From Polytrichum commune (taxonomy: Eukaryota; Streptophyta; Polytrichopsida; Polytrichales; Polytrichaceae): a stretch of 64,000 nucleotides of DNA. The stretch spans positions 52,033,554-52,097,553 of the forward strand of contig OX485803.1 of NCBI GenBank assembly GCA_950295325.1, written 5' to 3'. Below are positions 29,594 through 63,962 of this stretch, piece after piece. A program made the translations under genes and the position numbers. Under the pieces are notes generated by a model. The model had not been told where the DNA came from. It did not search any database and saw nothing but the letters and a program-made list of their open reading frames with translations. Each line of letters starts with the position of its first letter. The stretch's first letter is position 1.

Positions 29594-29596
<3 letters not shown>

Positions 29597-31264: not shown

Positions 31265-31308
<44 letters not shown>

Positions 31309-37249: not shown

Positions 37250-37415
37250 GAAAATTACCCATCGTTAAAGAGGCATTCATGATATTACGCGACGATGTGG
37301 TCATTAGAATACAACGGTGAGATGTTGGGAGTTCAGTCTGAATCTAAGTCTCTCTGCGTAACTTTTCGAGCATCTCACTGTTATGTTTTGAGAGTTGAAC
37401 ATTGAGTGATGTTAT
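37250..37415. repeat. Dispersed repeat paired with 49857-50012
   Basis: Both copies share GAGATGTTGGGAGTTCAGTC-like sequence, then AATCTAAGTCTCT, AACTTT(T/C)CGAGCATCT and a closing GAGT(G/A)(A/G)TGTTATG. This copy is the more diverged. Confidence 0.6.
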
Positions 37416-39213: not shown

Positions 39214-39333
39214 TACAACCTAGGGATTGTCGTTTTGATCCCAAATAACACCTAAATTTGGGCTCAAAGACCTAGAACTAGTCTATTGTTAGATTAATAT
39301 GAATGAACAACTAACCATTAGTGAGGATATTCT

Positions 39334-39786: not shown

Positions 39787-39789
39787 GTG

Positions 39790-41634: not shown

Positions 41635-41669
<35 letters not shown>

Positions 41670-41985
41670 TTAGAGAGCGCAGTTACAAAAATTTCCGTAA
41701 GGGATCATTATTGAACAGGAGTTGGGGGGAGAGATATTGGAATGAAGTTGTAGGAGTCTAGCATATTCTAATACTTGTTCCTGAACCTGCCGCAGGTGTT
41801 TAGGCAGCTTGTGGCTTACACTATCATGTGTTTAAATATGGCACTTGCTCATCATGATTTGGGTGTAAAGAGTGGTGATCAAGTGCATGTGAAAATATAT
41901 ATATGTCGCAGTAAGTATATATGTTGATGTTGTTGCTTGTGGTGGTGCAGAGGGTAGAAATAAGTGAATAGGGAAGGAAAGCAAG
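39790..41985 (+). promoter_or_regulatory. 5' region of the NAC gene, GC/CT-rich, with an internal tandem duplication
   Basis: Base composition changes here from AT-rich to GC- and CT-rich (for example 40368-40440 and 40586-40625), as is common for plant promoters and 5' leaders. A segment is duplicated: landmarks at 41158 (CTGATCATGACG) recur at 41560 (CTGATCATGATG), followed in both by TTAGCCTCTGCGAA, a GA microsatellite, a TTAGAG(A/-) block, AACA(A/G)GAGTTGGGG and GTTCCTGA(G/A)CCTGC. A third partial copy begins near 41847. TTGTGGTGGTGCAG, ending at about 41950 just before the start codon, could be the acceptor of a leader intron. I cannot place the transcription start. Confidence 0.5.
41085..41890. 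repeat. Imperfect tandem duplication upstream of the NAC start codon
   Basis: Two diverged copies (about 41085-41480 and 41480-41840) are followed by the start of a third. The period is about 400 and then 360 bases. Each copy contains a GA microsatellite (41221-41281 and 41636-41667). Copy 1 also contains a run of 18 G (41378-41395). Confidence 0.7.
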
Positions 41986-44413
41986 ATGAGCCAACTGACG
42001 GCCGCCCGAGTTCCAGTGGGTTTTAGATTTCACCCCACTGATGAAGAATTGGTGGGTTACTACCTCCCCAAGAAAGTCGGTGCAATCAAGATTGATTTGG
42101 ACCTCATCCGCGACTTGGATCTATACAAGCTTGAGCCATGGGACCTGCAAGGTCAGCAACCGAAACTCTTCCTTGCAAAACAGTACATGCATCCAGGATC
42201 ATCATGTGTAGGCTATTCTGCAGATCATCCGGACAGACCCCCCCCCCAAAAAGAGTATTATAATCCATACCTGCAAGATGACGGAACTTGAAAATTTACA
42301 TGAATGATGACGATGATGATGATGATAGAACCAGCCGCATGCTTAAAATCCAAAAGCTCGGCTAGGATTCAGTAGACTTGGGCACATGAAATCCTGTCGA
42401 ATTATTTTTGAGTGATCAATGATCATCCCAGTACTACTGCAGGCATTCTCCTAGTTGGTTCAAAACACCCTCAGAAACCGAAAGGTAGGATTTCATTGTG
42501 TTAACGATCGGACTTGCACATTGCCTGTGGACATGTATTGCAACTTATAATAGGCACCATGAGCCCAATTGGTTCGTTGTGATCGGTTGTTAGGCTTGCA
42601 GGATTTCCACTAACGAGTTGGATTGTATGAACGACGTCACAGAGCTGTGCAAGATTCAAGCGGACACAAATGAGAAGCAAACGGACTACTACTTCTTCAG
42701 CCGGAAGGACAAGAAGTACCCGACTGGCAATCGCGCCAATCGGGCTACTACCAAAGGGTTTTGGAAAGCCACAGGGCGTGACAAACCCATCTACACCAAA
42801 CTGCAGACCTTGATTGGCATGCGTAAGACGCTCGTTTTCTACGAAGGCCGTGCCCCCCACGGCGTCAAGACGGACTGGATCATGCACGAGTTTCGCCTTG
42901 ACGATGGCCCTGGTCGACCGGCTCATGTAAGACTTGATCCCCTCCTCTCCTCTCCTCTCCTCACATCCCACCAATTCATTCTCTCTTCGGTGCATGCCTG
43001 CCCTCTTAATCACATAACCCAAGTAGCAACAATATTACAGACCCTTATTGTTATAAGTTAACTCCACGTAAAAAAAAACCCCAAGTGGCAAAGATCCCAC
43101 AGGCACGCTTATAAACCCACATCATAACTCAAGTAGCCAAAAGCCCACAAGCACTTATAAGTTAACCCACATCGAAACCGAAACCCAAGTAGCTAGAATC
43201 CCGCAGTCTCTTACACGTTTACTCACATAAAACCCAAGTAGCAACAATCCCACAGGCACTTGTAAGTTAAATCGCATAGGATCCAAGTAGCAAGAATCCC
43301 ACATGCACTCATAAGTTAACTCATAAAATCCAAGTAGCAAGAATCTTACAGGTACTTATAAGTTAACTCATGTAAAATCCAAGTAGCAAGAATCCCGCAG
43401 GAACTTATATGTTGCTAACCCACATAAATGCCGAGTAGCAAGATCTCACAGGCCTTACACGTTAACCTACATAGAACCCAAGTAGTCACTTATACGTTAA
43501 CCCGCTTAAATGCCATATAGCCTCAAGGTTTCAGAGGCTGTACCGAATGGGTGAACTCCAACCTATCTTACAATAAGGCTTGCATCATGAGAAGTAGAGG
43601 CGGCGATGATGAGAGGACTGTTGGTTTTGGAATTGCTTGGTGTTTGTTGCATGTCTGATAAATAATTCATGCTTCGGCGGTTTCCAGGAGGACGGTGGCT
43701 GGGTGGTGTGCCGAGTGTTCAAGAAGAACAAGAATTTCAAGATGAAGATGCAAGAGAGGGCATGCTCATTCGAGGAGCAGATAGGTCTGTTGCCGGAGAT
43801 GAGTTCGCCTGACATCCTTTCAGGAGGCGGTGGCAGCCATCAACATCATCATCATCATCACAACAACAACAACAACAACAGCAGCAGCAGCAGAAGCTAC
43901 ACATTCCCCAACAATCATCATCACTACGGCGTCAAACAGGAAGTGATTAATCTGGACGAGTATAACCCCTGCGGCCACGGCCAGTACTTCAATTCTCTCG
44001 CACAGCTTGGCATGAACAAGCTTGCATCTACAGAGCGCCATTCTATGCCGTCCGCCTCCGAGTGCCGGTCCCTCATCATCAAGAAAGACGACTACTTGGT
44101 CGACCCTTACCCCGAAAACTCATTGAGTGTGTTGGAGGAGCCGCAGAGCAGCGTAAACAACAACATCAATAACAATGAGGAGGCTATCTCGGGGCTGGAG
44201 AATTTGGACTGGAATGCTCTATACGAGGCTCCTGGGAAAGAGTTTCGGTCAAGTACTGCACAGCTTATTATACCCGGCACTACTGCTACTGCGAAGAGTG
44301 AGCCGTTGGTGGGGGGTGACATGAGCATCCTATTGCAGCTCAAGAGGCAAAACTCGGACATTCTCTCTTCGTTGGACCTTTGGAACTACACTCAGGTGGC
44401 CCAGCAGAAGTAG
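41986..44413 (+). CDS. NAC-domain transcription factor, VND/NST/SMB-like (VNS) class, three exons
   Basis: Exons are 41986-42151, 42643-42926 and 43688-44413. The join gives 391 codons plus a stop. The first acceptor was chosen because G plus AG restores DLQELCKI, the usual NAC continuation after PWDLQ; the second junction restores the glutamate before [13 protein letters not shown]. The NAC domain covers about residues 9-164: [20 protein letters not shown] (dimer and A/B subdomains), [20 protein letters not shown] (C), [12 protein letters not shown] (DNA contact) and [18 protein letters not shown] then WIMHEFRL (D). Motif spacing and the intron positions after PWDLQ and before WVVCR fit the VNS group, which drives secondary-wall, water-conducting or root-cap programmes. 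The usual W of (E/D)WYFFS is Y here. The third exon holds a His/Asn/Ser-rich run (about residues 207-225), LPEM and a C-terminal [11 protein letters not shown], probably the activation region. The protein should be nuclear. Assignment to VND, NST or SMB is not settled. Confidence 0.92.
43019..43513. repeat. Tandem repeat inside NAC intron 2, about 10 units of 48-62 bp
   Basis: Each unit has (C)CAAGTAGCAAGAATCCCACA, then GG(C/T)ACTTATAAGTTAAC and CACATAAA. Units vary in length and are diverged. The array fills most of the second intron (42927-43687). Related frames on the other strand are only translations of the repeat. Confidence 0.85.
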
Positions 44414-45309
44414 AAAATTAAGCGAGGCAAAATGCATGCATCAGTAGATCAGATCGTTGCATCCGTCACTCATTCATCATCAACCACATTGTACACAGAA
44501 AACATCATCAACAAGGGGGGTTTGGGTCAGGGAGAAGTGCAATAGGGAGTTCCAGGAATGCAGCCACCGAAGCTCATCATGTATAGGGAGGGCAACAAAT
44601 AATGTGTACATGGAAGGCTCGAGTCTCACGAGCTCGGGAAAAACAGAGTGGATTTGTACATATAGACTGCAGACAACCCAAAAGCTAGCGCAGGATCACT
44701 GGATGTACTGGCATCACAGAATTCCATGACGCATTTGCATGACAACATTGGTTTCCACAGGAGGAAGATCGACATCGCAACCCGAAACGGTGCAGACTGC
44801 AAATGATCCAACAAATGGCACACACCAAAACCCATCATCTCCTTGCTCATAGGAAACAACAACCACCAACAGACAGACCAGAGTAAATGACCGCAGATTT
44901 AACAAAGTTCTTCATAATTGCATGCGTGTTGTGTTTGATCTTACAAATGGATGGCCCTCAGCCTCCTGATAAAGTGGGCGGGCTGATCCTCAACCCTTGC
45001 ATCATGGTCAGGGTGAATGAATGAATGACTGACCCCACGGCTAAAACTTTTAGTGGGGAAAAATAGCAGCGCTTTAAGGTTAGTTAGCCAAGTTTTACAG
45101 AATACTAGACTGTTGATAGACATTGTATACAAATTTATATTCCTCGTGAGTCTGCGAGGAAAGGTTTACTACCATAGCAGGAGCCACACATTGTGGAGAA
45201 ACCATATACTTCCTTCTTGTATCATACTCTGATTTGCACTTATAAAATGGATACAAGAGCATTTGATGATGCGTTTCATACGATCCCCCATCTTGCTATG
45301 TTGCACCGC
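44414..45309. other. Intergenic gap between two convergent genes
   Basis: This holds the 3' untranslated regions of the NAC gene (+) and the LRRCC1-like gene (-). I see no further coding sequence and no strong AATAAA signal on either strand close to the stops. Small frames here have no domains. Confidence 0.6.
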
Positions 45310-47185
45310 CTATGTTGCAGTGTCTCGCAGCTCTTCCAACAGTTTCCCCAGTTGATTGACCTGAGAGGTTGCAAAAAAAGAAAAGAAAAAGAAAAAAGAG
45401 GTTTATGTTGCAAGTATGACATCAGAGACTTGATTTGGTTTCCTGTATTTGTTTCTCTGGCAGTTTACAAAACTGTGGTATGTCAAGCAGGGATCAGCTC
45501 AGATGGTTGTTGAGTTATAAGAACACTTGTTGTCTTCTGGTGTCTGTCAATTCTGAGCATCAGTCTTCGAGGTGCCAGTCTATTTATCAAAGTGCAGGGT
45601 TTGAATATTTTTGAGGTTGTTTTTTTTTGTTTTTTTTTTCCCTGCATTTATAAGCACATGACTGACATTCTAGTTGTACATAAAGAAGGGCTTGAATTAA
45701 AGGCACGAGGTGCTTCACTAAGACTACATGCAACATGTAGACTCTCTGTGCAAGGAGATAAGCTACAAGAGGGAGAAGTTTGATATGGACCTTGGCAGTG
45801 GAGACTGCCTTCTGCCTCTCCAAGGTCAAAATACGGGAGTGCATTTGGGCTTCGACCTCCAGCACTTTCATGTTCAATTCTGCAATCAGGGCGTCCTTCT
45901 CCTCCAACGCAGCATTTGTCTTCTTTTCTTGAGTCTGTCCGAAAACATGGTCATACTTTTGTGAGCATCTTCTTGGCATACATTCACTATCCTTCGGTCC
46001 AGTTTTTCAAAAATGCCCATATTGTACATAGACCAGATGTAGACAAAGGATGTCTGTCACAGCTAATTGTTGGTTCCAAATTCTAAGTAAAATCCAGTCC
46101 CAAGTTTTGCTTGTATTGGGAATAGCTCATTTGGCGATTGCCATGATCAAGTTATTTGGACAAGGCTTTAGAAAACTCTACGAGCTGATGTGATGGAGAA
46201 CCGCAGGGATCTTGTGCATCTCATGACCTTACGACCAATGAAGACCCGCAAAAACTCGATCAAAGTAATCTGAAGTAGAAAGCATGAAAGCTTTCTCATT
46301 GTGCTGTTTAGCGACTTACTAAACACCGTACACAAAACTGAAATAAAAAGAAAGAACGAGTAAATTCAGGAATACACTGCAAACCTTGAAGGAAAATGAA
46401 GGCGAAGGAACTATCAACTCCCCTTTCTGTTGCTTTCTCTACATGGCTTGATACTGAATCAAACGCTTTCACTTGTGACTTTGCGACTGAGATTCTGAGA
46501 AGAGAGTGTTCATTATGTTTACTGTGTCTGAAGCCAATGTTTGTTTGGTGTGACTTCCATTACAGGATGTTGATCTCCCTTCACTTTCATGTATGACAGA
46601 TCATGATGAGGATGGAGTGCAATTTCTGGCATTGTAATGCAAAGTACCATGTGCTTAACTACGTACACTGCCCCCCAGGACACCTTTTACCACAGAACTG
46701 ACCATCTCACAACTTGAGGTGCCCGCCCCTGACATGAAGGATACAAAAGAAATTAAATTGTTTGCTTTCGGTGACTATGGTCACTGCCTTTCTTAAAAAT
46801 CAATTAGTGAATCAATCAATTAATCTAACCTCCATAAATTTGGCTGTTTTCTCAGATTGAGCTCGCAGTGTAGCCTCAGCTGCCGATTCTGCTTCAGCCA
46901 TTTTCTGTCATGCACAAACCCATGGAGCCAATGTTCACCTCCTGACTGACGTGGGACCACTGAATGATGAGAAGTAGACTAAAATAAAATACAGTTGGAA
47001 TCTGATCTCTGATATTATTATTGTGGTGGTGCAGATATTAGTCTGCAGGTTCATGTGAGAGAGGTAAGGAAATGTTCTTGGTGAGACTCTTCTTTTATAG
47101 CTTGAGGAACTGTAAAGAATCCACGACATCATCTGCTATACTTAACAACTTTCAGAAGGGGTATTACAAGTTCCAAAGTAAGAGA

Positions 47186-47216
<31 letters not shown>

Positions 47217-50200
47217 CCTTCTGAAGAGCTTTGAGCTCCTCTAAAGCCTGATCTCGTTGAACCACAACGTTTCTCTCTTTGCCTTCATACAGGCTCTTCA
47301 CACGGCTGATCTCTTCCTCCACATACCTGCCATCCCAGCGCCTCTCCCATCATCATGAATATGATGAAGATTATATTGAAAAGTATTCTCTGACAATTGA
47401 AACGCTTAAATTCCTTGCCAACAAACATACAAGGCCCGGGCTGGCAATTCTCCCCTTTCTAATTCACTTCGTATACTTCTGATGTGTTGATGATTTGTTA
47501 TGTCCCAAAGAGAGGCAACATGTTTGGAAACATGGCATCGAGAGGAATCCATTGATACAATTGTGTCTAGATTAGAGTAAGTTTGCACTTCCATATTTGT
47601 CATGTTTAGATTTATTTTATTTTTTTCATCAAAAACATGGGTCACCATCCAAGGTACTATTGAGTTTCACTTTTGATAAGTTTTTAGTCTTACATCATTT
47701 TATAATGTGAAAGTGGCTCCAACATAATGCTTCTTAAGAATGGTTTAGCATTTCCAAAGTAAGTTTTAAAAAACAAAGAGAGGGGCAACTCTCTGGGAGG
47801 CACAAAATGGAATTGGACAACCCTCCTCTCCTAGAGATATGAGGATTTGATCCTTCTTATTAGGGCTCAATTTAGGAACACATCACTATGGGGATCGTGT
47901 GGTCTTACCATAGTTTGGTACCCAACCACTAGATGGTTACAAAAGATGTGGATATGGATTTAGAATTTACTGCCTTCATGATAGATCACCGAATCATCTT
48001 GTGACCAGGAAGCAAGGTCCAAACTGTGGTACTACCACATGTTCCCGTAGTGCTTGTCACTCGAGTGCCACTTGGGAGCTCCTTGGGAGATCAAACTAAT
48101 GAGGTAGGTAATGGCCTAGGGGATGGATTCTTTATTGGAAACCTAAATGACATGCGTGGGTCACTATGAAATTAAACCCCCTATACACAAGAATTTCATA
48201 GAGAAAAACAAAAGTATACATTCTAACAGCATGCTAGAAAATTGGCTCATATATTTATACTAATATTTTCAATATCATGTAATAAATGCCTCCGCTACAT
48301 ATACAAAATATAGATCATGAATTAAATAGGCCTTATTACATATGGAATCCACTTTCACTTTCCAATGAGAAAGTCATATGAATTGTTTTTTCATTCATAG
48401 CATGTAATTCAAGAATTGCATCAAATTGTCAAAAAAGACAAGAACACAATAACTTAAACATAATCCAAAGAGCGAAACTCAAGGGAGCCCATGATGAGCA
48501 CTTCAAGAGCCTTCAATTTGTAAAAACCTAAAACCCAAATGCAAATCATAACAAGAACGGACATGGTAGTCATTAAGGACTACTACCACATGACAAACAC
48601 AAATTGGATGAAGTTAACACATCTATAGTCAAACCTTAGGGCCCTCTATTGTACATCTACCTTTACGTGCAAAAGATAAATCAATGGGCATTTTAAATGT
48701 ACAAACTAAAGAAAAAGAATACCTCTCCCTTTTGTATACTATGTATACTAATGCCTCAAATAATAACTCCTTCCTACATTCACATTAGCACATACATGGT
48801 ATGAAGAGTCCACCCCTGGGAGTAATGGTGGCCATAATGCTTTTGCATACTCCATTGGGATTTCTTCAAATACATGTAAATATGTACATACAATTTTGAT
48901 TTTTTTAGTTTAATTTTTTTTTTTTCCAGCCTGCCATGTCTAGCCGATGCCATAATTGATGTGATGGTCAATCGCTTGGTCGACTATCACATCTATTATG
49001 ACACCCATGCCATGGACATAGGTTCCGAAGAAGCAAGTGTACTAGCATCAACCTATGTGAGCCTTGTCCTAGTGCACATAAATTGCAGCAATACGATTCA
49101 TGTGATGTGTCCAGTAAAAACCTACCCCCTATAGGTTTATGGTTGATTCATCCCAACATAATCCCGTTTTCTCATGAAATCCAGTTAGGAGTTTCTCATG
49201 CTAAATTTTGTGGCCAATTCATGCTAAATTCTCATGCTAAGGGGAAAAAATTCTCTAAGCCATAAGGAATTGCCAACATGTTTACTCTCAACTGACATGA
49301 TTAGCATGGATCCGTGGCCCTTGGACACTGCCTCTGTGCAATGTGTTCTTTGTACTAGACAATATACACAATACCACTGAGAGAGATTATATGTGGGACT
49401 AGTCACTGAACTCTGTACTCGAGTTTCAAAGGAACGACCGCCCTGGTGGCCAAGCATACACCTCTTATTCTTCCATGAGGGATCCCAGTTAGTAAAAGGT
49501 GATATGCAATAACCCATCTTATAATTATTATAACACAATGCAATATTGAGCCACGACAATCCGGTGAATGAAAGTTTAGGAGTGATGACCTGAGCATGGA
49601 ATCCACATCATTAACTTTCTGTTGGAGAGCTTTGCATGCATTCTCTGCTGCAGTTTTTGCGCCTTTCACAATCTTGAGTTCCATCGCCATATCAGAAATA
49701 ATAGCCTCTTGGTCTGTCAGCTCACTTTGCAGTGCATGATTCTGCAATACAGGATGCATGATATATCTTCATATTAAGAGGACGCGATTAACGTATAGGA
49801 GGAGGACAAAGCAAGGAGCTCACCATCCAAAAGTGATAATTCGGTGATAAGTAAATCGTAACATTACTCAGCGATGTGGGCCTTTGGAACATAACATGCG
49901 GATGTCGGGAGCTCAGTTAAAATCTAAGTCTCTTTGCACAACTTTCCGAGCATCTGACTGTTGTATTCCAAGGGTCCATTGAATGAGCACTAAGTACTGA
50001 GTAGTGTTATGATGGGAGCTTTATAGGAAGAGGACAAAATCATTAAAAATAACTCAGGTGATGCTTGTAGTCTATTAGTTTGGACCAAAGCTTTAAAAGA
50101 TGTAGAGGAGAGGAGGCCTTCGGCTACGAGAAAGTCATGGACAACTTCGTTGTGCATTGGAAAGCCAATAATTCCCTCTTTTTTCGGGTAGATTAGTTGT

Positions 50201-53200
50201 GGGTGTCATTGTACATAGCATTCTTCAGGAGCTTAACAATGTTCACTTTCTAATTTGGTACCACACATTGCTCGTGCCGGTGTCAAGCACAGGCTAGGTA
50301 ATAGGGTTCTTTGTAATAAATGACAACCAACGTAATTAAGCCTACCGGTTTCTTGGATATTTGGTGAACTTCTCCCATCTACCTAGTTAGAACCCGACTG
50401 AAAATTTATAAGTATGCGCCATTTATTTGCAATTGAGTCGAGAATCTTTGCAACAAGAAACTGGCCGCACTGAACATGATAGGTCAATTGAAGAATGTTC
50501 CGTATCTTTCTTGAGATTGTCTAGCTCCACCATATACAGCCTAGAGAGAACTTCCCCTTTCTTTGGTGTGGGTCACAGTAGTCTTGGATGTTTCATGTTT
50601 TTATATATAATAAACAAGAATAATGAAGTGGGGCATTGCAACGACAACAGCCCCTGTACCTTGGACACTAAAGGCTCATTTTCCCTAGTACGCTGACAGG
50701 CTCTTTGGTCCGTGATTTAATGACAAAACTAGTGAGTGAACCTTTCAACATTGGGAATTTTCGGAAAGGCCAGAACAATCTGAAGAATAAAGGGTCCAAG
50801 AAACATACGGATTGCGCTTCATTTGACACCTGCATAGTGAGTAGGTTGGAAGTGATGTTTACCAACTGTAGGCCTTATCTCTTAGATTATAAAGACGACT
50901 ATTTGTCTTGCCTGGTCAATTTCCTCTTGTAAACGTTGTTGCCAATCAGATTCAAGGACTTTGGCTTTGGTGATGGATTCTTGGGCTACCCCCTTCGCCT
51001 CAACAAGCTCGCTTTTGAGCTGTCGAATAGTCTCGTTTTGACTGTCCAACATCTTACTTTTCACCTGCATCAACATGTGCATCGTGCTGAATTCGGCTCC
51101 ACAGTACACTAAATATGGGTATTCAGTGTTACTCACGCTTTGGAGTTACACAATGCTACATCTTTTTACTACTGAATGTAGCTTTTAACCCAAGTAAAGA
51201 TGTTAGTGCTCTATGCTGTCCAAACAACCAGTGTGACCTTTGTTGGCAAGAAGTGAGATATACAGTAAATGGTTATAGCATTGCATAATCCTGAATTGTA
51301 ACTGACACTAAATACAATATTTAGTGGAGTGTATTTTCCCTGAGAATGTCTAAATGTGACTAGCTTGTTAAACTACGACCAGGATAAGCTCCACAATGAT
51401 ATATCTGCTGGGGGGGGGACAGACTCAGGACTAAAACACATTGAGAAAGATAAACAATTTCTCACAGTGAGAATTTGTAACCGGGAAAACTAGCAGAGGT
51501 GAATCCATGGACACTGCGACGTAAGTTAATCTCATATTATCATTTTTCCGGTGAGGAATAAATGCGGATCGAAATGCACCATGGCACAAATTTCGTTTTG
51601 AAAATTTTACAACGGTCATTGCCCATTAAAACTGTCCGTTATGGTACGATCTGAGGTTGAATATAGAACCTGTAAGGTTTATGATTCTTAACCAGAAGAT
51701 ACAACCCACATGAGGTACCTACCCTGACGACGTCCTCAGTCTCTTGAAGTTTTTGCATCAATGCCATAACTTCGGAGGCCGCCTTCTTGTTTTCAACTTT
51801 AAGAGCAGACAACTGCGCCCGTGCAGCTTTCTCGAAGGATTTCTGCTCTCTTTCGGAGACGCATGACACACTTGCAAGTTCACGTCGAAGTGCATCCACT
51901 TCCAAAGCCTTCTCTTCTGCAACTTGTGTCTTCTCACGTAACTCTGTGACCACCCCTCGGAGGTGCTCTACCTCCTAATAACCCACCATGGAAATTGTTT
52001 GCAAGGATTGATAAGCAAGTGGAAAAACATATTCTATAATCATTATAGAGATATCCTTTAACCGAATGAGGTTTCTTGTCGGGGGAGTCATTCGGATTCA
52101 TTCCCTTATGATTTTGAATTGGTTCTTTTGCGTGCTTTTTAACTAATTTTTTCTGAACATGTGTAGTGCATGCTCAGAGGTAATGCTTGAATTTGAATTT
52201 GAATGAAGAGCAACCTATTTCTGTTTGTTGATGGCCAAACTCATTCCAACGTCTCTTGGCATGCCAAAATGAATTTGACCCTCAATGAACCAATATAATA
52301 TATTAGAATGTTCTTCCTTCAAACCTCCACACTAGCTCCAAGCATGCAACACAAATTTACCAAACATGGGAGGCATTCCATGCAAAACAATCAACTACTG
52401 ACCAAAAGTGATGTTGAGGTAGAGGATAACGCTAATGTGGTGGGAATATGAGGTTCTTAAATATCATGTGCACAAGATTGAGCTCATCATGACTGATAAT
52501 TGATTGTTGCACATATTCTAAAATGACTTGACAAATTAATGATGCTATGATAGAAACCTCATTAAAAATAAAAATAAACCACAACTTGATGAATGGATAT
52601 AACAAAACGTTGGTTTTGCTCGGGAGCAAGCATGAATGAAGAGCCTCTTCGTCCGCAGGTTACTACCCCATTTTGGGGGTGTTCATAAAATCACTTATTG
52701 ATTATAGGGATCATCGTTCATGTAAACTGGAATAATTGTAGGGAGATATTTCTTAAAAACATCTTGGTGAATAATCATCCCCAACTTAACATAACTGAGC
52801 CCTCACTGCTACAAATAAACCAAGATTTATGCCAACATAATTCACTTGAGATCATGATTCAAGTGGATGGCACAATCAAAACAAACACCATGCTTTGACC
52901 TATGCATTAGGGCATCGTCATATTGGGAAGAGAATTGGGTTATATTATGAAGTACTCCATCAAATTGCATACTCAATGAGGATAGGTTGGACCTTCACAT
53001 GTACATGAAGAATGGCATTAAACATTTAAAAGTGAGCTCAATTCCAATGTGCATTTGCTAGCTACCAAAGGGAGTCTCACCTTCTCACTAATGGCAAGGC
53101 GATCCAAATCATGTTGCACTTTTTGCAACCTTAGTTTCTGCATACCCATGATTCCAACTCTTAGTCAACATATTAGGTCCATTCCACAGGGTTTGTCCAC

Positions 53201-56200
53201 ATTACCACATATTTTCCTTGGTGGTAATTAGATTGCCAAATGTTCCTTGTGAGAATGTAGCTTTAAAATTCAAGCTTCCATCAAACAACGTTTTGATGTC
53301 TAGGGAGCAACTATTTGTAGCACCCATAGGGATCAACTTCTTTGGAGTTTGGTTTGGAACTATTTAAGAAACGTTATTTGGGAGTTTCTTTCACATAATG
53401 AGCATTTATAAGACTACGAGTTTTAAGAAATTTTATAAATTTTCAAGGAAGTAAAAATATTATTAAAAAAAACCAGGGTGTAGGGTTAACCCTTATTTTA
53501 AAAAAATTCTTTTGAGTATTTTTAAAAATGATATATGAAATGGTATAAATGGTGCAAATGGATTCCTCTCAATGCATATGCTCTTTTCAAGCACCTTCCT
53601 CCTCTTTGGGATGTACCTAATCATCAATTCACTAGGAACATGAGAAATGACGAAAAAACAATTGATCTAAATTGGAAAGTTGCCACCCACAGCATTAACG
53701 TATAAGATGCAAATAAACCTGAGCACGGATAACATCAGTTAATTCAGTGATCAATTCCTCCGCTCCTCTCTCCTGAATCACAAACAATAAACCATATCAT
53801 AAGATCCGGGATACTCCCTCTACAATATCACATACAAAACAATCCATAGGATTGGCCTTCCATACAAAAATAAACTAAATCTGTCCAAGTGCATTCCCAG
53901 TGACCACGCAAACTGTCACTCAATCATTGTGTGCATAAGTTTGAAACCAATAAAGAAATTTCGGTTTATAAAATCAAGGTAAGAGTAAAGGAGCTACACC
54001 TTTTGTTGCAACTAGTCTGGACAAGAGTCGAGTGGATCACATCAATTTTCAAATCCCTTAAGTTAGAACTAGAGTGGAGGATGTACGATCAACACAAACG
54101 CAAACAATAGTAGCATAGTGTCACATGACTTGGAGTGATTCATAAATTATTCGATGAGCGACCGTGACAAGTGGCACGATGAGAGTGATTCACACCAATG
54201 ATGACCGTGGCCCCACATGACATACAACCAAGATTCTTGACATTTATTGGACTCCATGATGCTAAACACCAAAATATCGCATGACACATGGCTTCGTGGG
54301 ATGTGCCCACCAAGGACAATAGATTAACTAGTTATACTATCGACTTCACAACACACCCTCTTTCTAGGACCTAAAAATTTCATGTGGTATACATCGGGCA
54401 CACGCCAATTGTTTGGGAGCAAAATTCTCGTGGGTTTTAGGATATAATTTGATTCACATTGATTCTAAAGTTTTGGAGGCTTAGAAACTTTGTAGTGTTA
54501 TCTATACTATTTGAGCAAAAGGTGTCGTGTGTTGGTTTCAGAAATATGGCCCCAAAATGATTTGGTCAACTTGGGGAACCAACCTTTTCTCTGATTGATT
54601 CGACTGTTGCCTTCAGTTGTGTGACTTCCTTTTCCATGTCGTCACGAAATTTCTTCATGTTTTGTAGATTTGTTGCATTGTCTGCCAGTTGCACACATAC
54701 ATTGAATGCAAAATAAAAGAAAACAAAGAACAACCTCATGCAAATATTCAAGATATGCAAAAGCTCCCCAGAAACTAGACTCGCTAGGTCTCTGACAACA
54801 ATATTAGGTGCTCGCCATTTCATTGTCCCAAATAATAAAATGAAGTGGCACTCAATGTTATTCCCCTCAAACCCTACCAGCTCCTCTAAATTTGGACTCC
54901 TCCTCATGCAAGTTACTCTTTGGTCAGTTTGAGTGGAGTAGGATGACTTGACCTTGAACAACCACAGATGGGACGAGAAAGATGGACCAAAACCATTCAG
55001 CAAGGTATTATGGACTCATGCAAAGATCACATGAACCAAAACAAACGAAACTTGATCAATCCGCCTTCAACTATGAGAGTTTTTTTAACCACTTCGACTC
55101 TTCTTGGAGAACTAACAACTTATCCTACTTTCATGGAGTCCCACTCCAAGATTTTGTGGAATATCAAATCAAGCAATGTTGGATCATTTTAACCATGTTG
55201 ACGGGGCACCTCGTCACCTTTCTTGAGGTTATCTAGTTACACCGCAAGTGCCCAAGAAAGCCGCCCAGTGGCTTTGTAGTCGTCGTTGTTTTTTCTTAGT
55301 ATTCTTCTTCTACAACAATAGTGGAATGAAAGAAGATAGCATTACACTTTCTCTCCAACTCCACCCGAAAAAAGTGCCCTCAAATAAACAGCAGAATTGC
55401 ACGTGTTCATTTCATTATACACTACAGCTAGAATCGATGGTGTTGTGGCACCTTGAAGGGACTGTCGGAGCTCAGTTTGTGTAAGCAAAAGCTTCGATTG
55501 CAACTCCTCCCGAACATGTGCCATGTCCTTTTCAGCTTTCTCTCGCCAGAACACCTCTAAAGCTGCCGACTCCCGCTCCAGCTTACTTCTCACCTCTAAC
55601 TCCTTTTCCCTGCACAAATGAGGAACAAGGTTGTATGGACAAAGTATGGACAATTTTTGGGGGGTTTAGATTAACCCTCCCTCTTCATGCTTCTTAATTA
55701 ATATCATGAAGCAATGATTTGTAACGACACAAAGAGAAGCAACATGCATGGTTGGCAAGAGGGCATTGAGAGGAATCCATTGATTTTCGCCTGAATGAGA
55801 AATTAAAGCTTAGTTTACACATTCAATCACTATATTTGTTAATCGGAGACTTTGAAAAGTCTCAAAATAAATGCAAATGGTTTAATATTTGGTCCAATTT
55901 CTTATTCTGATGACATGTATTTGTGCCAAATTGGTTAGTGCCACCCATGTGAATTGGTTTATTAAGTCACATTGAATATATATTTGTGTTTTCCTTGTTC
56001 TTTATTTGAAAACCATGTCCCTAAGTAGTCTCAAAATCATGAAAAAGTCTCCAATTACCGAATATAGTGATATTCATATATTGATCTTAGAACTATGTTC
56101 ACATGGGTTTCAAGTGGAGTTGCAAGTCCCACTCATGTTAGCAAGTTCCAATATGGAGGCAAAGTCTGGACCTTCGAGCCTTAACGAACCATGAGGATGT

Positions 56201-59200
56201 GATTGATTATCAGTAAGCTCAGGTCTTGATTATTTTTTTGCGAAAATGTTCACAGGACGTGTGTTGAGAGTTGGGTCTAACTTTTTGCTCGACCCAACTC
56301 TCAACGCATGTCCCAAGCCTCACCTCCAAAAAGTGTTGCCATGTAGGCATCCGTGTCATGCCTTGGGACTTAAGACTTGGGACCATGTGTGAAGTGGTAC
56401 GTCCCAAACTCCATGCTCTCGATGGTGAAGATTGCACGGATTGACCTCAAGTGACTTGGGATCCCATGTGAACTTACCTTCAAAAGCAATATTTCAAAAG
56501 TAAACGTATGGGTCATTGTGCAGACACCCTACGTATTTATTCTCGTTTAAAAGAGAATGCTGATGCCAAAAATGTCTTATCAACTCTGAGTCGTGTCCTA
56601 AAGATTTTGGCCTTTGCGGGTGTTATAGATAATTGCCATCTTGGGCATCACATATATGAGATATGGTTTTCAAGCATCATTGTGGTAAAGTATGTAACAT
56701 ACATGCCACATTCAATCAAGTCATGATACATCCTCTAGTGGACAAGCATCACGAGCTAGGATTGCTCCTAAAGAGATGTAGGCCTTATGTGGTCAATCTT
56801 TTCAATCAAACACCTATATTTGGGTGGCACATGGCAAGGCTTGTAGTCATGAACATAAAAAAAAAATTAAAAAATTAAAAAATTAAAACATGTTTTAATG
56901 GGAGTAGACTATGTGCTTAGAATGTAGACATCATTTTAGGTTGAATAGTTATTAATGCAAATGTGAGAGCCCACATGATCTCTTAAAGAGAAAAAAAAGA
57001 ATCTCAATTTTTACTATTAAATCTTTTGCATCTCAACTCCAATTCCAAAACCTGAATTGACAATCTTTACGATTCATAATTGATAACCAGATCCCCACAG
57101 CTTAAAAGTATGTCTTCAAGACTCACAATTTGGAGTTTTTATACTCTTGTAGCTCCTTGTGGACCCACTCAAGCTCTTTTGTAAGCCAATTGCATTCCTC
57201 AAGCCTCTTCTTTTCTTGATGCGCACATTTTTCCTGAACAACAGAGTACCAAAGCCCACAGAAAACTCAAGTTAGATACAAGGAAACAAGTCTGCAAATA
57301 AAAATGTAGTGACAAGTATTAGATGGCATGCTTTCATACAGGCCACTTGGCAATCTTATATTGCTTGGAAAGGAATCCACAGTTCGGAATCCAAAAACAT
57401 GAACCTCCTGCACCTTGCAGTAAATCCAACTTCACATGTACCGCATTCATGTCAACCCCCAACATCTAATAAACTAACAAGGTTTTTCTTTGGCCAAAGA
57501 CTTCTAGGTTCCCAGGGAGGTCACTAATTGTAAGATATTAAGAACCACGTGCAAAAAAAATATAGGGTGGAATAAACTCCAAAGAAGTAAAATTCATAAA
57601 ACAATGAACATACACCTAGGATACTAGAAATTCATTTTGAGACCTTATTACTTATATTTCAAGAATATTTATCAAATATATGAAACATCCCTAGATTATG
57701 CACATTGCTTGCTTCATAGGCCCTTAAGTTACCCCTTTATCGCATGTGATTCATATCCCAAAAAGGGAGCTATCTCTCACCCCCCCCCCCTCCCCAAAGG
57801 AGCTTAGTAATGTTATGTACAAACATGTAGGCAAAAAAAAGTTACATTTTTTCATCATGAGTTTTAAGAAATAAAAATGAGCACAAATCGATTTGAAAGT
57901 GGGAGGCCAATACATTACCAGCTCCTCCTCTGCAATTTTGAGTTTAGTGCGTTGCTCATCCAATGTTTTCGCCAACACTGTTGACGTCTCACTCACCCTC
58001 TCCATCTCACACATTGCATCTCCTAGTGCCTTCTCCGTCGTCTACAATGAGGTTAAATTTTACAATGATATATAGTCTACCCCTTTTCGAAACATATTTT
58101 GATCATCCAAAGCTCCCAAGCACTTCATATTTAATTTAAAATTCTAGCCACGAGCATCTTTGTAAGGTTTGGTGTTGCTTATAGGTAAATATGGCAATGT
58201 GAAGACAGTGACCATTTATGAATTTTGAGCCTATCATTCTGACAAAATTAATACATGAATTAAGTACATCCGGACTTTAAGGAATTTGAAACATACATGA
58301 CATGAGGTCAACCTGGCGTGCATTTTTGGCAAGGTCCAAGGCCTCCTTCAAGGCCAAAACCTCAAAATTCATTGTTGACAACTTAGCTTCTGCCTTCAAC
58401 CGAATGGTTGCTGCAATGTGATTTCGATCTGCAAGCAACCGCTTCTCCGCCACCGCAACAATGTCCCTCAATTTCTGAACCTCTTCTTCGTAATCCTACA
58501 GTAACCCAACTCAAGAATTTTCCTTACTTCACTAAAATCTTGGACAAAAGTCATTGAAACTCATTAAAAACGTCACATCCACATCAACTCAATACCATAG
58601 TAGACTTATCCATAAATTCTCTCAAATTTCTTGGTTTGATTGGGAGCTTTGGCTCATTTTGGACATTTGATCATGTATAAGGAGTGTTCAAGTGGTGTCG
58701 GAACCCCAATTCTTTTTGTAAAACAGAGAGAATGACTTTGGCCAAAAGATGGCTATATACAAATGAACTCCTTATCAAACTTTGAGTAATAAAACCAAGA
58801 AGGTGTTGACCATTCATAATGATGATGCATCCAATTTACCAACAAATATTGCAAGTTGTCAAGTCAAAATGCAAGTGATTAGGGTCTAATGTTGAGTCAG
58901 TTGTTGATACATACCTACCTTTGAGGGTTTGGCATATTTTTTCAATGCTCACCAAAGGTTTAGGAAATGATTCATTCCACATTGATTCAGCTCATTTCAA
59001 CCTTTTAGGTGGGTTAGAACTTTGGAATATAGATTACAAAAAACTTAGCCCTGTGTTTGGTACTCATTCAATGTTGTCAAAGTTTGACAAGATTGAGTGA
59101 ATGTGAAATGAATGTTGATGATACATGAATTTAAAGGATTCTGATGATGATTTTACATTGAAGGAACCCACTTACAGGATAGTCACCTTAAGCTTCAATT

Positions 59201-59946
59201 CTAGATTCGCAATAGTCATCGACTTCCTTTCATCCTCCAATTGAAAGCGCTCCCTTTCACTGCACAGAATTTGCTTCGATGTTGCCACTTCACCTTCCAA
59301 CACTTTCCGGTCTTCAATCAGCCTAAAAATCTCAGTATCTTTCTTTGCAAGCTCCACTTTTGCATTTTGATTCTTGCTTTCCATTTCAGCTATTGTGGAG
59401 CCTTCAATTAGCTTCCGCGAGAAAGATTCATCAGCTTTTCGACTCATGCTCGCCACCTCCAATTGCAGGTTGCTCACCTTGTCATCATCAACATTTTGAT
59501 ATTGAGTATTAAAAACCGTGACCCATCATCTCATAATTCAAGTGAATAGCATTTCATATTGATAGATACCCTTCAGGATTTGATATCTTCTTTTTTGTGC
59601 GAATCCAACATTTAGCTAATAATTCCTTCAACATTGATTCAACTCAAAATTTAACTGAATGGGTGTTGAAACTTCTATTTTAAAATAAATAAAATATTAA
59701 AATTGCAACCTTACGTTTGGTAGGCATTACTTCAATTATGTTGGAATTTGATATGATTGAATCAATGCAAAAATTTGCAAATAAAGTCGTACTAAGTTAG
59801 CTTTCAAACAACCATATTAATTTATTCATTTTTAGAGCAAGTGAAGAATTAGAAACCTCATGGCACAACCGCTCCAGAACAGGTTCAGGAACAGAATCCG
59901 TTTGAGCACCCGCCTCTTTGTATGTGCGGATTGGATCCTTTTGCAC
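45310..59946 (-). CDS. LRRCC1: LRRCC1-like gene, exons 3-18: coiled-coil region
   Basis: Sixteen small exons (51-291 bases) encode charged heptad-rich sequence, for example LEVRSKLERESAALEVFW, LRREL..SEREQKSFEKAA and ALEEKDALIAELNMKVLEVE. Exon 18 adds VNQLGKLLEELRDTAT and the stop. Several exons are multiples of three flanked by phase-0 introns (exons 3-6, 10-13, 16 and 17), so exon skipping would keep the frame. Exon 13 seems to use a GC donor (CAG|GCAAGA at 50910-50911). Confidence 0.8.
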
Positions 59947-62900
59947 CTACATTCAAGCCTTCCAACCATTTCATCAACAAACAAACATCATGACAAACCT
60001 CTATGTTCAATCACATCAAACTATCAGTATCTCATTTTTGGTAAGCATTAATTCAATGTTGATCACAAAAACATGCAAAGCCTACACAAAAATCCTCGAC
60101 AGTTCATGATTGACTATCATTGCGGATGTCATCAACAACTAAACATCACAACCTCTATATTTATATAGCAATACCGGTTTCACATTGATTCAACGACATC
60201 AAACTATAACCTCACTACAACATTGAACCTATGCCTACAAACAGAGGGTTGCAATTTTAATCGTTTGTTTCTTTATTGTATTATTGCAGTCTATCTATAA
60301 GGCTCAATTAAGTTAAATCAATGTTGAGTGAATCAATACACTACATATGATATTTAGTGTCACTTACTATTTGGAACTATGCAACGCTATAATTGATTAT
60401 TGTACATCTCATTTTTTACCAACAAAGGTTGAATTGGTTGTTTGGACATTATAGAACATTAACATCTCTACTTGCTAAAAATTACATTAATAATAATAAA
60501 AAGATATATGAATGTGTAACTCCAAATAGTAAGTGACAATAAATATCATATTCCGTGTAGCTAAATGTTGAGTTGGGCTAGCAAATAAATATCAAACCCC
60601 CTGAAGCATAGGTATGTATCAACACTGACTCCACATTAACCTCTATCCACTTTCATTTTGAGACTTGATGAGCGCATGCAACATTCAAATTAACACCTTC
60701 CAACAAAGAAAAAATTCACCAATGTGAATGTCAACAATGAATATTTCGTGGCATAGATTCAGCCACATCAACCTAAAACCTCACTCCAACATCAAACCAA
60801 TGTCTACAAACCCAGGTTACGATTTTAATCTTCTGTTTCTAAATGCTATAGTTGCGATCTACCAAAATGGAAGTTGAATGATGAGTTGAATCAATCCAAA
60901 AAAAAACCGAACCCTGAAGGAAGGGTTGAACAATAACCACTATAATCTATTCACTTGCATGATGAACCTTGAAGAGCTCATTCGACTTTCATAAACCTTC
61001 CATCAAAGAGAGCAAGGACGATTTCAGACACCAATGTTGCTTTGTGATGCAACTCAACAGCCAGAGGCCACATCACATTCATTTGTATGTCCCTGATAAT
61101 GCGTATATCAATCTCCATTTTGCCAATTCGTCGCAAAATTATGAAAAACTCACATAAACAAAAACCCTTGACAGCTTAGTCGGTTGAAGAGTGCCTACCG
61201 GTGTGGTGGAGTTTTTCGAATTCTTGCGGCCCACAAACCGAACATACCGGTTTCGGTGGGTGGGAAGAGCACCAGATGCAGCAACAACAACACTACTCTC
61301 AGAAGATCGGTCATCAGTGGCCGACGAGTCGCCTGCAACATCATCCTCCGCTAATTTTCTCCGAGGACTACTAATTTGCCCTCTTGAGGATAATTCCAAC
61401 CCACTCGCTTTTGCAAGTTGGCCCACAAGATCCAGCACCCGCACTTCCAACCTCCCTAACCGTGCTTCATGGTTATCATTCTCCCCTTGCTTTTTTTTCC
61501 TCGCACCATCAACCTCGCCGTCCGTCATCATGTCCGCACCATAATGCGGGCCATTATACGTCCCCTTTCCCATCTGCTGAGGGTAATGTGTCTGCAATAC
61601 TGGTCCACCTTGACAATTTGCAAACTGGGCATTCTTCGAATTAGGATGAATCCATTGAGTTTGGGATGATGGCCCAGACATGACTTCACCACATTGCGGT
61701 TTTTGAGGACCTCTCTGGGGTCTTTCCTTGGAAGGGCTTTTCCACCGGGGTTTATGAGGCTCCGGTACTTGATGAGGGTGGTGACTTCGTTTCTTTGCAA
61801 CAGGGTAAGGGTTAGGATACAATGGTGTCACACCATAACTATCCTGATACTGATGCTGTTCAACCCTAATCTGCTCCCTGGGATTTTGGGGGGACGGTGT
61901 TGAAGGGATTTCATATGGAGTGGGGGAGGTGGTGACATTATTGTTATTATTAACATGATTAGGGTTGTAAAAGACAGGGGGATGGTTGGGTGGGTAGCTA
62001 TGTTGCAATGCCCAAATGGGTAGTGGAGGCACCGACACCATCTCCAATGTTGATGATGGTGTCGCGCTGCTTGTCTGATCCATGGGTTTAAATTTGTTGT
62101 TTCCGTCCAAGCTTCGAAGGCACGGAACCACGGATCGAAGTGTCGAGTGGTATGTGCTTGCTTCGCACACCGGGTTCGTGTAACCACCATGTTGGAACAC
62201 TACTTCTTCGAGGTGGAGACAGCCTGCGAGCACCCATAATTCACACAGATATTCCACCAGGTTGCCTTGCAATTCGAGGTGCTGCAATGCGTACCTGAAT
62301 GAAATGTAATGAAGTGAAATTGATCATAAAGTCTGGGACTCCAAAAGGCTTATGGGACTTAAAGTACATCAAGATGGTGTCAAAAAGGTTATTTCACTAG
62401 AGTAGCGGAATGCAGAAGCCTCCGTGACATAGAGGCTAATATCAACTTGATGTTCCAATTAGAAGAAAGGCTTAAGACTCCCTAGTACTACGTTCTCAAA
62501 TACTGAAAGGAACTTATCTCCAATGGAGTCAACAAATTATTGAATCAAGTCATCAAATCCATCCCTTACTGCAATTTAGTTGCATGATGATGTCATATAA
62601 AATTTCCCCTCTGGAAGTTAAGTAGATCACCACATCCAGCTGACAAAAGATCAAAAGCAATCAAGTCAGCTAATACAAGTGCCAAGTGTAGCAAACCTCA
62701 TCGCAGGAGGCGATGGCAATCACGAGGAAGATTTTATGAAATGTATTGGAACTAAATGGGGTCACATAAATTCCCTCAGAGGCAAAGTAGTTGCACTCAA
62801 ATCGACACACAATTTTACATGTGATTTTGGAGGTTTTAGAGTCTCCACAGGACACAAAATATTATGTGTTTCCACCGACAGCTTGTTGCAGAGGAGAAAC

Positions 62901-63962
62901 GGGTCCAATAAGCCTTGAATCTCGATCTACCATAGCTGATTGATGATGAATGAGGGAGTCATGAAAGTCAAAGAAATGAAATAAATGAGCTGCGCTCTCA
63001 CACTAGCCCGTGCTGCCTCCTTTTTACAATGTGCAAACATTTTAGTCAAACCCAGCTGGCTATTACCATCAATTCAGTTGTTGAGTAAACATTGTAAGGA
63101 GGAAAATTACCAAATAAAAAAATAAAAAATATTGTTCAAAACACACTGCAGACGGAAAAAAAAGACGGAGGAGACGGAAAAAGCCTTCATCTATGATGAG
63201 GTTTTGGACCATTTTGACAGGATATGGAGAGCCAATAATCTTCTCTAAGTTACTGATGTTCAAACTCTTAACATTTTTTGGAACATCCACACGCTACTGT
63301 TGACTCAGTTGATCATGCTTAGGTTTCTCTTTTATTTTTGTGGTGTGAGATGGTTCCACCATGTGCACCCCAGAGAGTATCCCGGGTCTCTGTTTTAGGT
63401 CCCAATGGCCTTGTCTGGTATTTTGGCAATGAAATAAATTGTTTCCTTTGTCTCAACACAAAAACTGTAAAATATCAAAAAAAATCCCAAGGATATAAAT
63501 TAACACACATATAGTCACGAAAGTGATGAGTAATCATGACAGATGAGCACACTGATTGAAGCACCAGATAAAAATATATCCTAATTAGAAATAGAGGACT
63601 AGGTACTCACTGGGGTCCGTGGACAGCCGACAATCCACCAAGCAGGGCAATCCGGTTGTGGGAAAGGATGAGATGTTGGAGAGCCACCAACCCATGCAAG
63701 CCAGTGATTTCCCGGATCTTGTTACTCGCAAGATTGAGGACCCGGAGGTTTTTGAGGTGAGAAATACCCTCCATTCGTGCAATGTTGTTGGACGACAGGT
63801 TGAGTGTCACAAGAAGGCTCAACACCTCCAAGCCCTCGATACGTTTGATCTGGTTGTCATGCAAATTCAGCGTCTGGAGGTTGACAAATTTGGAGAGACC
63901 CACGATCGCATTCGGGGACTGTAGAGAAGCTCCAAGCGCATATATCTCCTTGATCTCATGAT
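45310..63962 (-). CDS. LRRCC1: LRRCC1-like leucine-rich repeat and coiled-coil (centriolar) protein, 5' end beyond window
   Basis: Eighteen exons in transcript order: 63611-63962, 61154-62294, 59857-59946, 59187-59477, 58313-58495, 57919-58041, 57127-57233, 55452-55609, 54584-54681, 53719-53772, 53081-53137, 51723-51974, 50912-51064, 49590-49741, 47218-47326, 46830-46904, 45791-45934, 45310-45360. All 17 junctions keep one reading phase and the joined frame is open for 1195 codons to a TAG at 45310-45312. Order of domains: SDS22-like LRRs (residues about 25-160), LRR cap with NPVC and LRSLDG, a disordered P/N/Q/H-rich linker (about 180-490), then an almost unbroken coiled coil to the end. Human LRRCC1 (1032 aa, recalled length) has the same plan and a matching LHG...L.YIDLHSN / NPVCRLPGYR section. 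In animals the protein sits at centrioles and centrosomes. The first exon starts in phase 2, so at least one more exon lies to the right. Weak points are the donor at 45789-45790 (GTCCAT), the acceptor of exon 4, and the end of exon 2, where a second in-phase donor exists near 61200. The gene symbol denotes the family, not proven orthology. Confidence 0.85.
47188..47212. repeat. CA dinucleotide microsatellite
   Basis: A CA run lies a few bases beyond the donor of exon 15 (47216-47217), within intron 15 on the transcribed strand (GT repeats in the RNA). GU repeats close to a donor can influence splicing. Confidence 0.9.
47327..49589 (-). other. Long intron 14 of the LRRCC1-like gene
   Basis: At 2.26 kb this is the longest intron. 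It contains a segment near 47500-47590 (AGAGAGGCAACATG, GAGAGGAATCCATTGAT) also found near 55730-55800 in intron 7. No nested gene is seen. Confidence 0.6.
49857..50012. mobile_element. MITE with GTAACATTACTCAG ends, in intron 13 of the LRRCC1-like gene
   Basis: The left end GTAACATTACTCAGCGATG and the right end CTGAGTAGTGTTATG are inverted repeats. The body shares AAATCTAAGTCTCTTTGCA and CCGAGCATCTGACTGTTGTA with 37250-37415. No coding sequence. Confidence 0.7.
51105..51325. mobile_element. MITE of the TATTTAGTGTCACTTACTA family, copy 5, in intron 12
   Basis: The left side reads ACTAAATATGGGTATTCAGT then GTTACTCACG; the right side GCATTGCATAATCC then GTAACTGACACTAAATACAA. The interior shares GTAAAGATGTTAGTGCTCTA and CCAAACAACCAGTGTGACC with other copies. 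It sits between exons 12 and 13 of the LRRCC1-like gene. Confidence 0.65.
56263..56305. repeat. Short perfect hairpin, 15-base arms
   Basis: GTTGAGAGTTGGGTC at 56263-56277 pairs exactly with GACCCAACTCTCAAC at 56291-56305 around a 13-base loop. It lies in intron 7 of the LRRCC1-like gene. It could be the remnant of a small inverted-repeat element. Confidence 0.7.
60345..60552. mobile_element. MITE of the TATTTAGTGTCACTTACTA family, copy 6, best preserved
   Basis: The left end ATATGATATTTAGTGTCACT continues TACTATTTGGAACTATGCAA. The right end is the inverse complement (AACTCCAAATAGTAAGTGAC then AATAAATATCATAT), giving paired ends of about 40 bases. It lies in intron 2 of the LRRCC1-like gene. 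It encodes nothing. No clear target duplication is seen at these ends. Confidence 0.75.
61154..62294 (-). CDS. LRRCC1: LRRCC1-like gene, exon 2: last repeat, LRR cap and disordered linker
   Basis: The acceptor ATTCAG gives Y-ALQHLELQGNLVEYL, the fifth repeat, then EEVVFQHGGYTNPVCEAS and RSVVPCLRSLDG, an LRR cap. From about codon 75 the exon becomes rich in P, N, Q, H and S (for example HVNNNNNVTTSPTP and KSPSKERPQRGPQ), without predicted structure. A short amphipathic stretch, RLGRLEVRVLDLVGQLAKA, may start a helix. The chosen donor is TTTAT|GTGAGT at 61148-61153. Long frames on the + strand here (61191-61903) are shadows. Confidence 0.85.
62295..63610 (-). other. Intron 1 of the LRRCC1-like gene
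   Basis: This 1.3-kb interval separates the repeat-encoding exons. It contains only short frames on both strands with no domain, plus A-rich stretches near 63110-63180. No nested gene or clear transposon end is seen. Confidence 0.6.
63611..63962 (-). CDS. LRRCC1: LRRCC1-like gene, first visible exon: leucine-rich repeats
   Basis: Acceptor GTCCAG precedes 63962 and donor CCCA|GTGAGT follows 63611. The exon encodes four consecutive 22-residue SDS22-type repeats: LQTLNLHDNQIKRIEGL, LVTLNLSSNNIARMEGI, LRVLNLASNKIREITGL and LQHLILSHNRIALLGGL. It ends in AVHGPQ, whose last codon is split. Taken alone, such repeats also occur in dynein light chain 1 and PP1 regulatory subunits; the downstream coiled coil decides for LRRCC1. 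Confidence 0.88.

What the first reader, a model, noticed from the sequence alone, without database searches (positions are those of the whole stretch)
45310..63962. A plant gene with the full LRRCC1 (centriole protein) architecture
Seen: SDS22-type repeats, an LRR cap and a coiled coil of roughly 700 residues, joined by 17 phase-consistent introns over 18.6 kb. Known: LRRCC1 localises to centrioles/centrosomes in animals. Most flowering plants lack centrioles, while mosses, lycophytes, ferns, cycads and Ginkgo form them de novo in sperm cells. Inference: this plant probably makes ciliated sperm, and the gene may act in the blepharoplast or basal body.
Basis: partly seen in the sequence, partly recalled or inferred. 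Interest (0 to 1): 0.85.

Follow-up and report, generated by a model that had tools for sequence, protein, structure and literature searches.

The report
Moss basal-body protein gene, LRRCC1/VFL1-like
This is a moss gene, seen in one copy, for a protein built like the animal and algal basal-body protein LRRCC1/VFL1, and the same genome carries other parts needed for swimming sperm, so it fits a known kind of protein in a plant where it is expected.

Summary
My minus-strand model has 19 exons and 1203 residues (18 introns, 17 of them GT-AG); exon 1 lies about 0.8 kb beyond the window. The protein has SDS22-type LRRs plus a cap, a 300-residue Pro/His/Asn-rich linker, and 667 proline-free residues with a 3.5-residue hydrophobic period. 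No second copy was seen.

The key inference was testable in the window's own genome (408 Mb, seven large contigs). It carries SAS-6, eight clusters of dynein heavy-chain exons, IFT46 and PACRG. Of three LEAFY loci, two were compared with solved structures; both are closest to the moss (Physcomitrella, recalled) protein. Type II and type I residues occur together, as reported for mosses outside Bryopsida. So this is a moss and very probably makes flagellate sperm.

Orthology to LRRCC1/VFL1 rests on architecture, copy number and genomic context. No animal or algal LRRCC1 sequence was available, so reciprocal best hits and a tree could not be run. Best reading: a VFL1/LRRCC1-type protein marking one side of sperm basal bodies. 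New member of a known kind, modest interest.

The parts
63611..63962 (-). exon 2: LRR domain, first part (residues 23-140)
   Evidence: open frame, acceptor gtccag|, donor |gtgagt, phase 1 in, phase 2 out; Pfam LRR_4/LRR_8/LRR_9
61199..62294 (-). exon 3: last LRRs, LRR cap and Pro/His/Asn-rich linker (residues 140-505)
   Evidence: acceptor attcag|, donor |gtaggc
59857..59946 (-). exon 4 (residues 506-535)
59187..59477 (-). exon 5: start of coiled coil (residues 536-632); weak acceptor
58313..58495 (-). exon 6, coiled coil
57919..58041 (-). exon 7, coiled coil
57127..57233 (-). exon 8, coiled coil
55452..55609 (-). exon 9, coiled coil
54584..54681 (-). exon 10, coiled coil
53719..53772 (-). 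exon 11, coiled coil (54 nt, chosen by the program alone)
53081..53137 (-). exon 12, coiled coil (57 nt, chosen by the program alone)
51723..51974 (-). exon 13, coiled coil
50912..51064 (-). exon 14, coiled coil; GC donor, 3' boundary uncertain
49590..49741 (-). exon 15, coiled coil
47218..47326 (-). exon 16, coiled coil
46830..46904 (-). exon 17, coiled coil
45791..45934 (-). exon 18, coiled coil
45310..45360 (-). exon 19, end of coiled coil and TAG stop codon
   Evidence: acceptor tctcag| after a long pyrimidine tract; not found in the stricter model

Best explanation
The gene encodes the moss member of the VFL1/LRRCC1 family. This is a basal-body protein whose N-terminal SDS22-type LRR domain binds a partner and whose long C-terminal coiled coil makes it a rod. 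By analogy with Chlamydomonas Vfl1p and human LRRCC1, it would sit at a few microtubule triplets near the distal end of each sperm basal body. There it would mark one side of an otherwise ninefold-symmetric structure, so that the fibres and microtubule band of the sperm attach with the right orientation. Shown: gene structure, architecture, no second copy seen, moss identity, and a genome with centriole and axoneme genes. Inferred: orthology, localisation, expression in antheridia, and function.
For: Architecture: LRR plus cap, linker, 667-residue proline-free heptad region. Copy number: of 20 matches in the genome, 16 are this gene's own exons and 4 are LRR-only fragments at two other loci (38 of 204 candidates scored). 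Genome context: SAS-6_N 77.5 bits, dynein heavy chain AAA_6 37 exon matches in eight clusters plus one lone fragment, PACRG 8 matches, IFT46 3 matches. Moss identity: the two LEAFY copies compared score 218.7 and 201.3 bits to PDB LEAFY homolog 1 (4bhk; Physcomitrella, recalled) against 171.1 and 180.6 to PDB PROTEIN LEAFY (2vy1; Arabidopsis, recalled). Type I plus type II LEAFY in one genome is reported for Polytrichum commune and other mosses outside Bryopsida (PMC6588583, passages). Role of the family: PMC8983040 (passages).
Against: No sequence comparison with any LRRCC1 or Vfl1p was possible. The LRR domain matches many SDS22-type proteins, with bacterial LRR proteins and PP1R7 above any ciliary one among the 60 shown. 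The coiled coil matches nothing solved at E <= 0.01. A motif recalled for the male-germline regulator DUO1 is not enriched in the 2 kb upstream: 1 site where 0.66 is expected, and 0 of its stricter form where 0.25 is expected. Flagellar gene hits were not assembled into genes: 10 of 37 dynein, 2 of 8 PACRG and 2 of 3 IFT46 matches contain a stop, which may be intron read-through or decay.
Confidence: 0.7

Rival explanations
1. It is another ciliary or centrosomal LRR/coiled-coil protein (recalled candidates: centriolin/Nud1, CEP97, CEP72, DRC3, LRRC9), so its job is elsewhere in the basal body or axoneme.
For: SDS22-type LRR plus coiled coil is shared by several such families (recalled); the DRC3 LRR region matches at 65 bits.
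Against: The match to solved DRC3 chains covers LRRs only, and the coiled coil has no solved match at E <= 0.01. A separate LRRC9-like gene appears to lie at C2:42.085-42.089 Mb (L041, name recalled). Size and order fit VFL1/LRRCC1 best (recalled sizes: Vfl1p about 128 kDa, LRRCC1 about 1030 aa; here 135.6 kDa).
Confidence: 0.17
2. It is a plant cytoskeletal or scaffold LRR/coiled-coil protein unrelated to centrioles, present also in flowering plants.
For: No flowering-plant genome could be searched. The LRR domain alone is not diagnostic.
Against: No second copy was seen, in a genome with many flagellar genes. I recall no flowering-plant protein of this layout (recall only).
Confidence: 0.1
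3. Two adjacent genes were joined: an LRR protein and a coiled-coil protein.
For: No transcript data. The exon 3-4 intron is 1252 bp, the linker is long and low in complexity, and the program only looks for one chain.
Against: Exon 3 has a good donor with no stop codon before it, and exon 4 an acceptor in phase.
Confidence: 0.03

Closest known systems
Vfl1p (Chlamydomonas) / LRRCC1 (human), VFL1 family
   Same: N-terminal SDS22-type LRRs with cap, long C-terminal coiled coil, similar size (known members' layout and size recalled), organism with basal bodies
   Different: About 300-residue Pro/His/Asn-rich linker between the LRR domain and the coiled coil; whether relatives share it was not tested. 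Sequence orthology not tested.
DRC3 (dynein regulatory complex subunit 3)
   Same: SDS22-type LRR plus coiled coil; 65 bits over the LRRs
   Different: About 520 residues; its coiled coil does not match here
PP1R7/SDS22 and DNAL1
   Same: SDS22-type repeat pattern
   Different: No long coiled coil (recalled); an SDS22-like LRR gene lies elsewhere in the genome (L040; name recalled)

Membership tests
LRRCC1/VFL1 | N-terminal block of SDS22-type LRRs (about five, recalled) closed by an LRR cap | tested here: met
   Pfam LRR_4, LRR_8 and LRR_9 over cut-off; five repeats and a cap read by eye at residues 50-205
LRRCC1/VFL1 | Long C-terminal coiled coil in the same polypeptide | tested here: met
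   667 residues without proline, period 3.50, heptad score 9.0 SD above shuffles; joined in one predicted chain, no cDNA
LRRCC1/VFL1 | Reciprocal best hit / tree position with known members | not testable with these tools
   No LRRCC1 or Vfl1p sequence or other plant genome was reachable; viral-contig scan with the LRR domain empty
LRRCC1/VFL1 | Carried by organisms with basal bodies or centrioles | tested here: met
   SAS-6_N, dynein heavy chains, PACRG, IFT46 in the same genome
LRRCC1/VFL1 | Rotationally asymmetric position at the distal basal body | not testable with these tools
   Needs imaging; described for relatives in PMC8983040 (passages)
DRC3 | LRR plus DRC3 coiled coil, about 520 residues | tested here: not met
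   Coiled coil has no match to any solved chain at E <= 0.01, solved DRC3 included; 1203 residues
CEP97, centriolin | Family-specific sequence outside the LRRs | not tested
   No reference sequence reachable; no Pfam family other than LRR families over cut-off

The most novel reading that the evidence does not exclude
In mosses, which build centrioles from nothing only in sperm-forming cells (recalled), a VFL1/LRRCC1-type protein sets the sidedness of newborn basal bodies. That would couple them to the lamellar strip and microtubule spline, showing that rotational asymmetry can be laid down without a parent centriole as template. The long linker would be the adaptor for that plant-specific structure.
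Probability: 0.25. Interest if true: 0.6.

Novelty: new member of a known kind. Interest (0 to 1): 0.3.

Why it matters
It gives a well-delimited candidate, seen once in its genome, for how basal bodies get their sidedness in a lineage that makes them de novo, in a group where gene removal is routine in the laboratory moss Physcomitrium (recalled). It also shows that the ciliated-sperm inference drawn from raw sequence was right for a reason that can be checked (SAS-6, dyneins). As a discovery it is modest, because a basal-body protein is expected in a moss.

Tried and rejected
Flowering plant: my first assumption from intron lengths, the NAC gene and seven large contigs. Rejected once SAS-6, dynein heavy chains and moss-type LEAFY were found.

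Relatives in viral contigs, LRR domain as query: 4 stretches matched a pattern, none confirmed. Solved structures for the coiled coil: none at E <= 0.01. The LRR domain gives 204 PDB sequences at E <= 0.001, 60 shown, too generic to name the family.

Small contigs as a source of a plastid genome to name the species: I sampled the first 9.9 kb of 14 of the 57 small contigs, scanned all 14 for tRNAs and 6 with Rfam, and listed ORFs in three, L009, L010 and L014. L010 reads as a fungal mitochondrion and L014 as a phage; no plastid DNA was recognised in these pieces.

DUO1-like motif upstream: not enriched. Other gene models: a stricter run with 18 exons that skipped several clear exons, and a looser run with three more short exons, weakly scored, one of which breaks the coiled coil with prolines (second run). 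The choice between the runs rests on an exon penalty that I set.

Literature: VFL1 with land plants gave one paper, whose passages are not about a plant VFL1. LRRCC1 with plant gave 12, none about a plant LRRCC1 by its title. LRRCC1 with evolution, centriole and lost gave 4. Four further searches for plant centriole or LRRCC1 papers gave 0, 0, 0 and 4, one gave an unspecific 1,312, and one for the species gave 8 unrelated by title. I make no claim that the plant gene is unreported. Six papers looked up by recalled identifiers were not held. The radial spoke (PF04712) and C2CD3 (PF25339, accession recalled) searches did not complete.
Full report
What was checked. The finding claims a gene on the minus strand from 63962 down to 45310 with 17 introns, SDS22-type LRRs, a cap and a coiled coil of about 700 residues. 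I rebuilt the gene with a dynamic program over splice sites and codon scores, starting from an ATG chosen by eye. Its codon scores in those calls were trained on peptides of this same gene, and phase consistency is a condition of the program, so the independent control is below. One further exon lies outside the window (window numbering 64790-64724, G000:C1:52098277-52098343) and supplies the start codon in phase. The full model is 19 exons, 1203 residues, 135.6 kDa. Of 18 introns, 17 are GT-AG and one is GC-AG. A stricter run gave 18 exons with a different end, and a looser one gave 22 exons.

More than chance. With codon scores trained only on exons 2 and 3 and any ATG allowed, the stretch downstream of them scores 81.6 (17 exons, 2103 bp; this chain was not traced exon by exon). 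Its opposite strand scores 11.2, four other strand/region tests score 7.0-14.5, and eight Markov resamples score 2.1-6.5. Two further tests score higher: 70.1 for the plus strand of 30000-46100, which holds a NAC gene, and 40.1 for its minus strand, which overlaps the last exons of this gene and the strand opposite the NAC gene (not traced).

Anatomy. Residues 23-205: LRRs and cap; Pfam LRR_4 57.9 bits, LRR_8 42.7, LRR_9 35.0, all over cut-off. Residues about 206-505: linker rich in Pro, His and Asn. Residues 537-1203: no proline; over 531-1203 the dominant hydrophobic period is 3.50 and the heptad score, with weights of my own, is 0.646 against 0.411 +/- 0.026 for 200 shuffles. The LRRs match 204 distinct PDB sequences at E <= 0.001; among the 60 shown, bacterial LRR proteins and PP1R7 lead and DRC3 is the best ciliary one. 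The coiled coil matches none at E <= 0.01. So the domain architecture is clear, but the family name does not follow from the LRRs alone.

Copy number. In the window's own genome the protein gives 20 matches at E <= 0.001: 16 are exons of this gene and 4 are LRR-only stretches at two other loci. 38 of 204 candidates were scored. One of those loci (L040) reads as an SDS22-like LRR gene, the other (L041) as an LRRC9-like gene; both names are recalled and come from reading fragments.

Which plant. The assembly has 407.8 Mb and seven large contigs of 77.9, 70.3, 59.2, 59.1, 52.9, 44.7 and 42.1 Mb. I first took it for a flowering plant. The family searches overturned that. SAS-6_N gives one match, 77.5 bits, E 2.1e-19, in an open frame that reads as a SAS-6 N-terminal domain. 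The dynein heavy-chain domain AAA_6 gives 37 exon matches in eight clusters plus one lone fragment (a reading frame). PACRG gives 8 matches and IFT46 gives 3. The tool's 14 control genomes gave 0 over cut-off for each of these families; AAA_6 rang below cut-off in 3 of 14. Those three are prokaryotes, so this is no control against other plants. All these hits lie on chromosome-sized contigs, so the fungal contaminant contig noted below does not explain them.

LEAFY gives 6 matches at three loci. Two copies read MRD and WCQACY at two of the three specificity positions, and one reads MRH and WRQACY; which residues mean type II and type I is recalled, and the third position was not examined. Two of the three copies, one of each kind, were compared with the PDB. 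Both are closest to LEAFY homolog 1 (4bhk; Physcomitrella, recalled), 218.7 and 201.3 bits, ahead of PROTEIN LEAFY (2vy1; Arabidopsis, recalled) at 171.1 and 180.6. A paper reports that LEAFY members from Bryopsida mosses are type II, that several moss lineages outside Bryopsida have both types, and that Polytrichum commune has been cited as such a case (PMC6588583, passages). The plant is therefore a moss, probably outside Bryopsida. Seven chromosomes fit the Polytrichaceae (recalled). Sperm of the moss Physcomitrium have two basal bodies and two flagella (PMC8128824, passages), while Gnetum, conifers and flowering plants lost many flagellar structural genes (PMC9023351, passages).

How it most likely works. 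Vfl1p in Chlamydomonas sits mainly at two triplets, and in its mutant the fibre, centriole position and centriole number go wrong. Human LRRCC1 has a similar asymmetric pattern and its depletion perturbs C2CD3 recruitment (PMC8983040, passages). Chytrid fungi are listed among the holders of LRRCC1/VFL1 orthologs (PMC12659703, passages). The moss protein has the same kinds of parts in the same order (layout of the known members recalled). The simplest reading is that it does the same work in spermatids, where centrioles arise de novo (recalled), marking the side on which the lamellar strip and spline attach. Gene content and anatomy are shown; orthology, expression, location and action are inferred.

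Limits. Two planned family searches, radial spoke and C2CD3, did not complete. The ends of exons 5 and 14 and the short exons 11, 12 and 19 are the least secure parts of the model.

Verdict. The ciliated-sperm inference is strongly supported by independent genes. The LRRCC1 name is likely but untested by sequence. The gene is an expected member of a known family in a moss.

Noticed in passing
L042 (G000:C1:40571878-40572195), L043 (C1:62299295-62299612), L044 (C7:8635861-8636175): Three LEAFY loci in one moss: two with type II residues (Asp/Cys) and one with type I residues (His/Arg) at two of the specificity positions. The coexistence is already reported for mosses outside Bryopsida (PMC6588583, passages).
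   Followed up: partly
L010 (contig C9) and L014 (contig C16): Assembly contaminants by reading of ORFs: C9 (67 kb) reads as a fungal mitochondrion with cob/nad6 pieces and intron ORFs, and C16 (34 kb) as a phage. No family scan was made.
   Followed up: partly
L001, window numbering 68676-69551, minus strand: A 292-codon reverse transcriptase stretch (Pfam RVT_1, 71.9 bits) about 4 kb upstream of the gene; by eye of group II intron type, with YADN in place of the usual YADD.
   Followed up: partly
41974-44413, plus strand: A NAC transcription factor gene (Pfam NAM, 141.9 bits) lying tail to tail with the LRR/coiled-coil gene, less than 1 kb between the two coding ends.
   Followed up: partly
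12965-14036 minus; 29513-29917 plus: hAT transposase remains: Dimer_Tnp_hAT found in the ORF 12965-13681; 13593-14036 and 29513-29917 look alike by eye and were not scanned.
   Followed up: partly
L041 (G000:C2:42081000-42090900): A separate LRR gene that reads like the ciliary protein LRRC9 (name recalled), a further flagellar candidate in this genome.
   Followed up: no
G000:C1:29.97-30.12 Mb and C2:45.725 Mb: PACRG-domain exons at two main loci, plus separate fragments nearby on C1, suggesting PACRG and a PACRG-like gene or duplicates.
   Followed up: no
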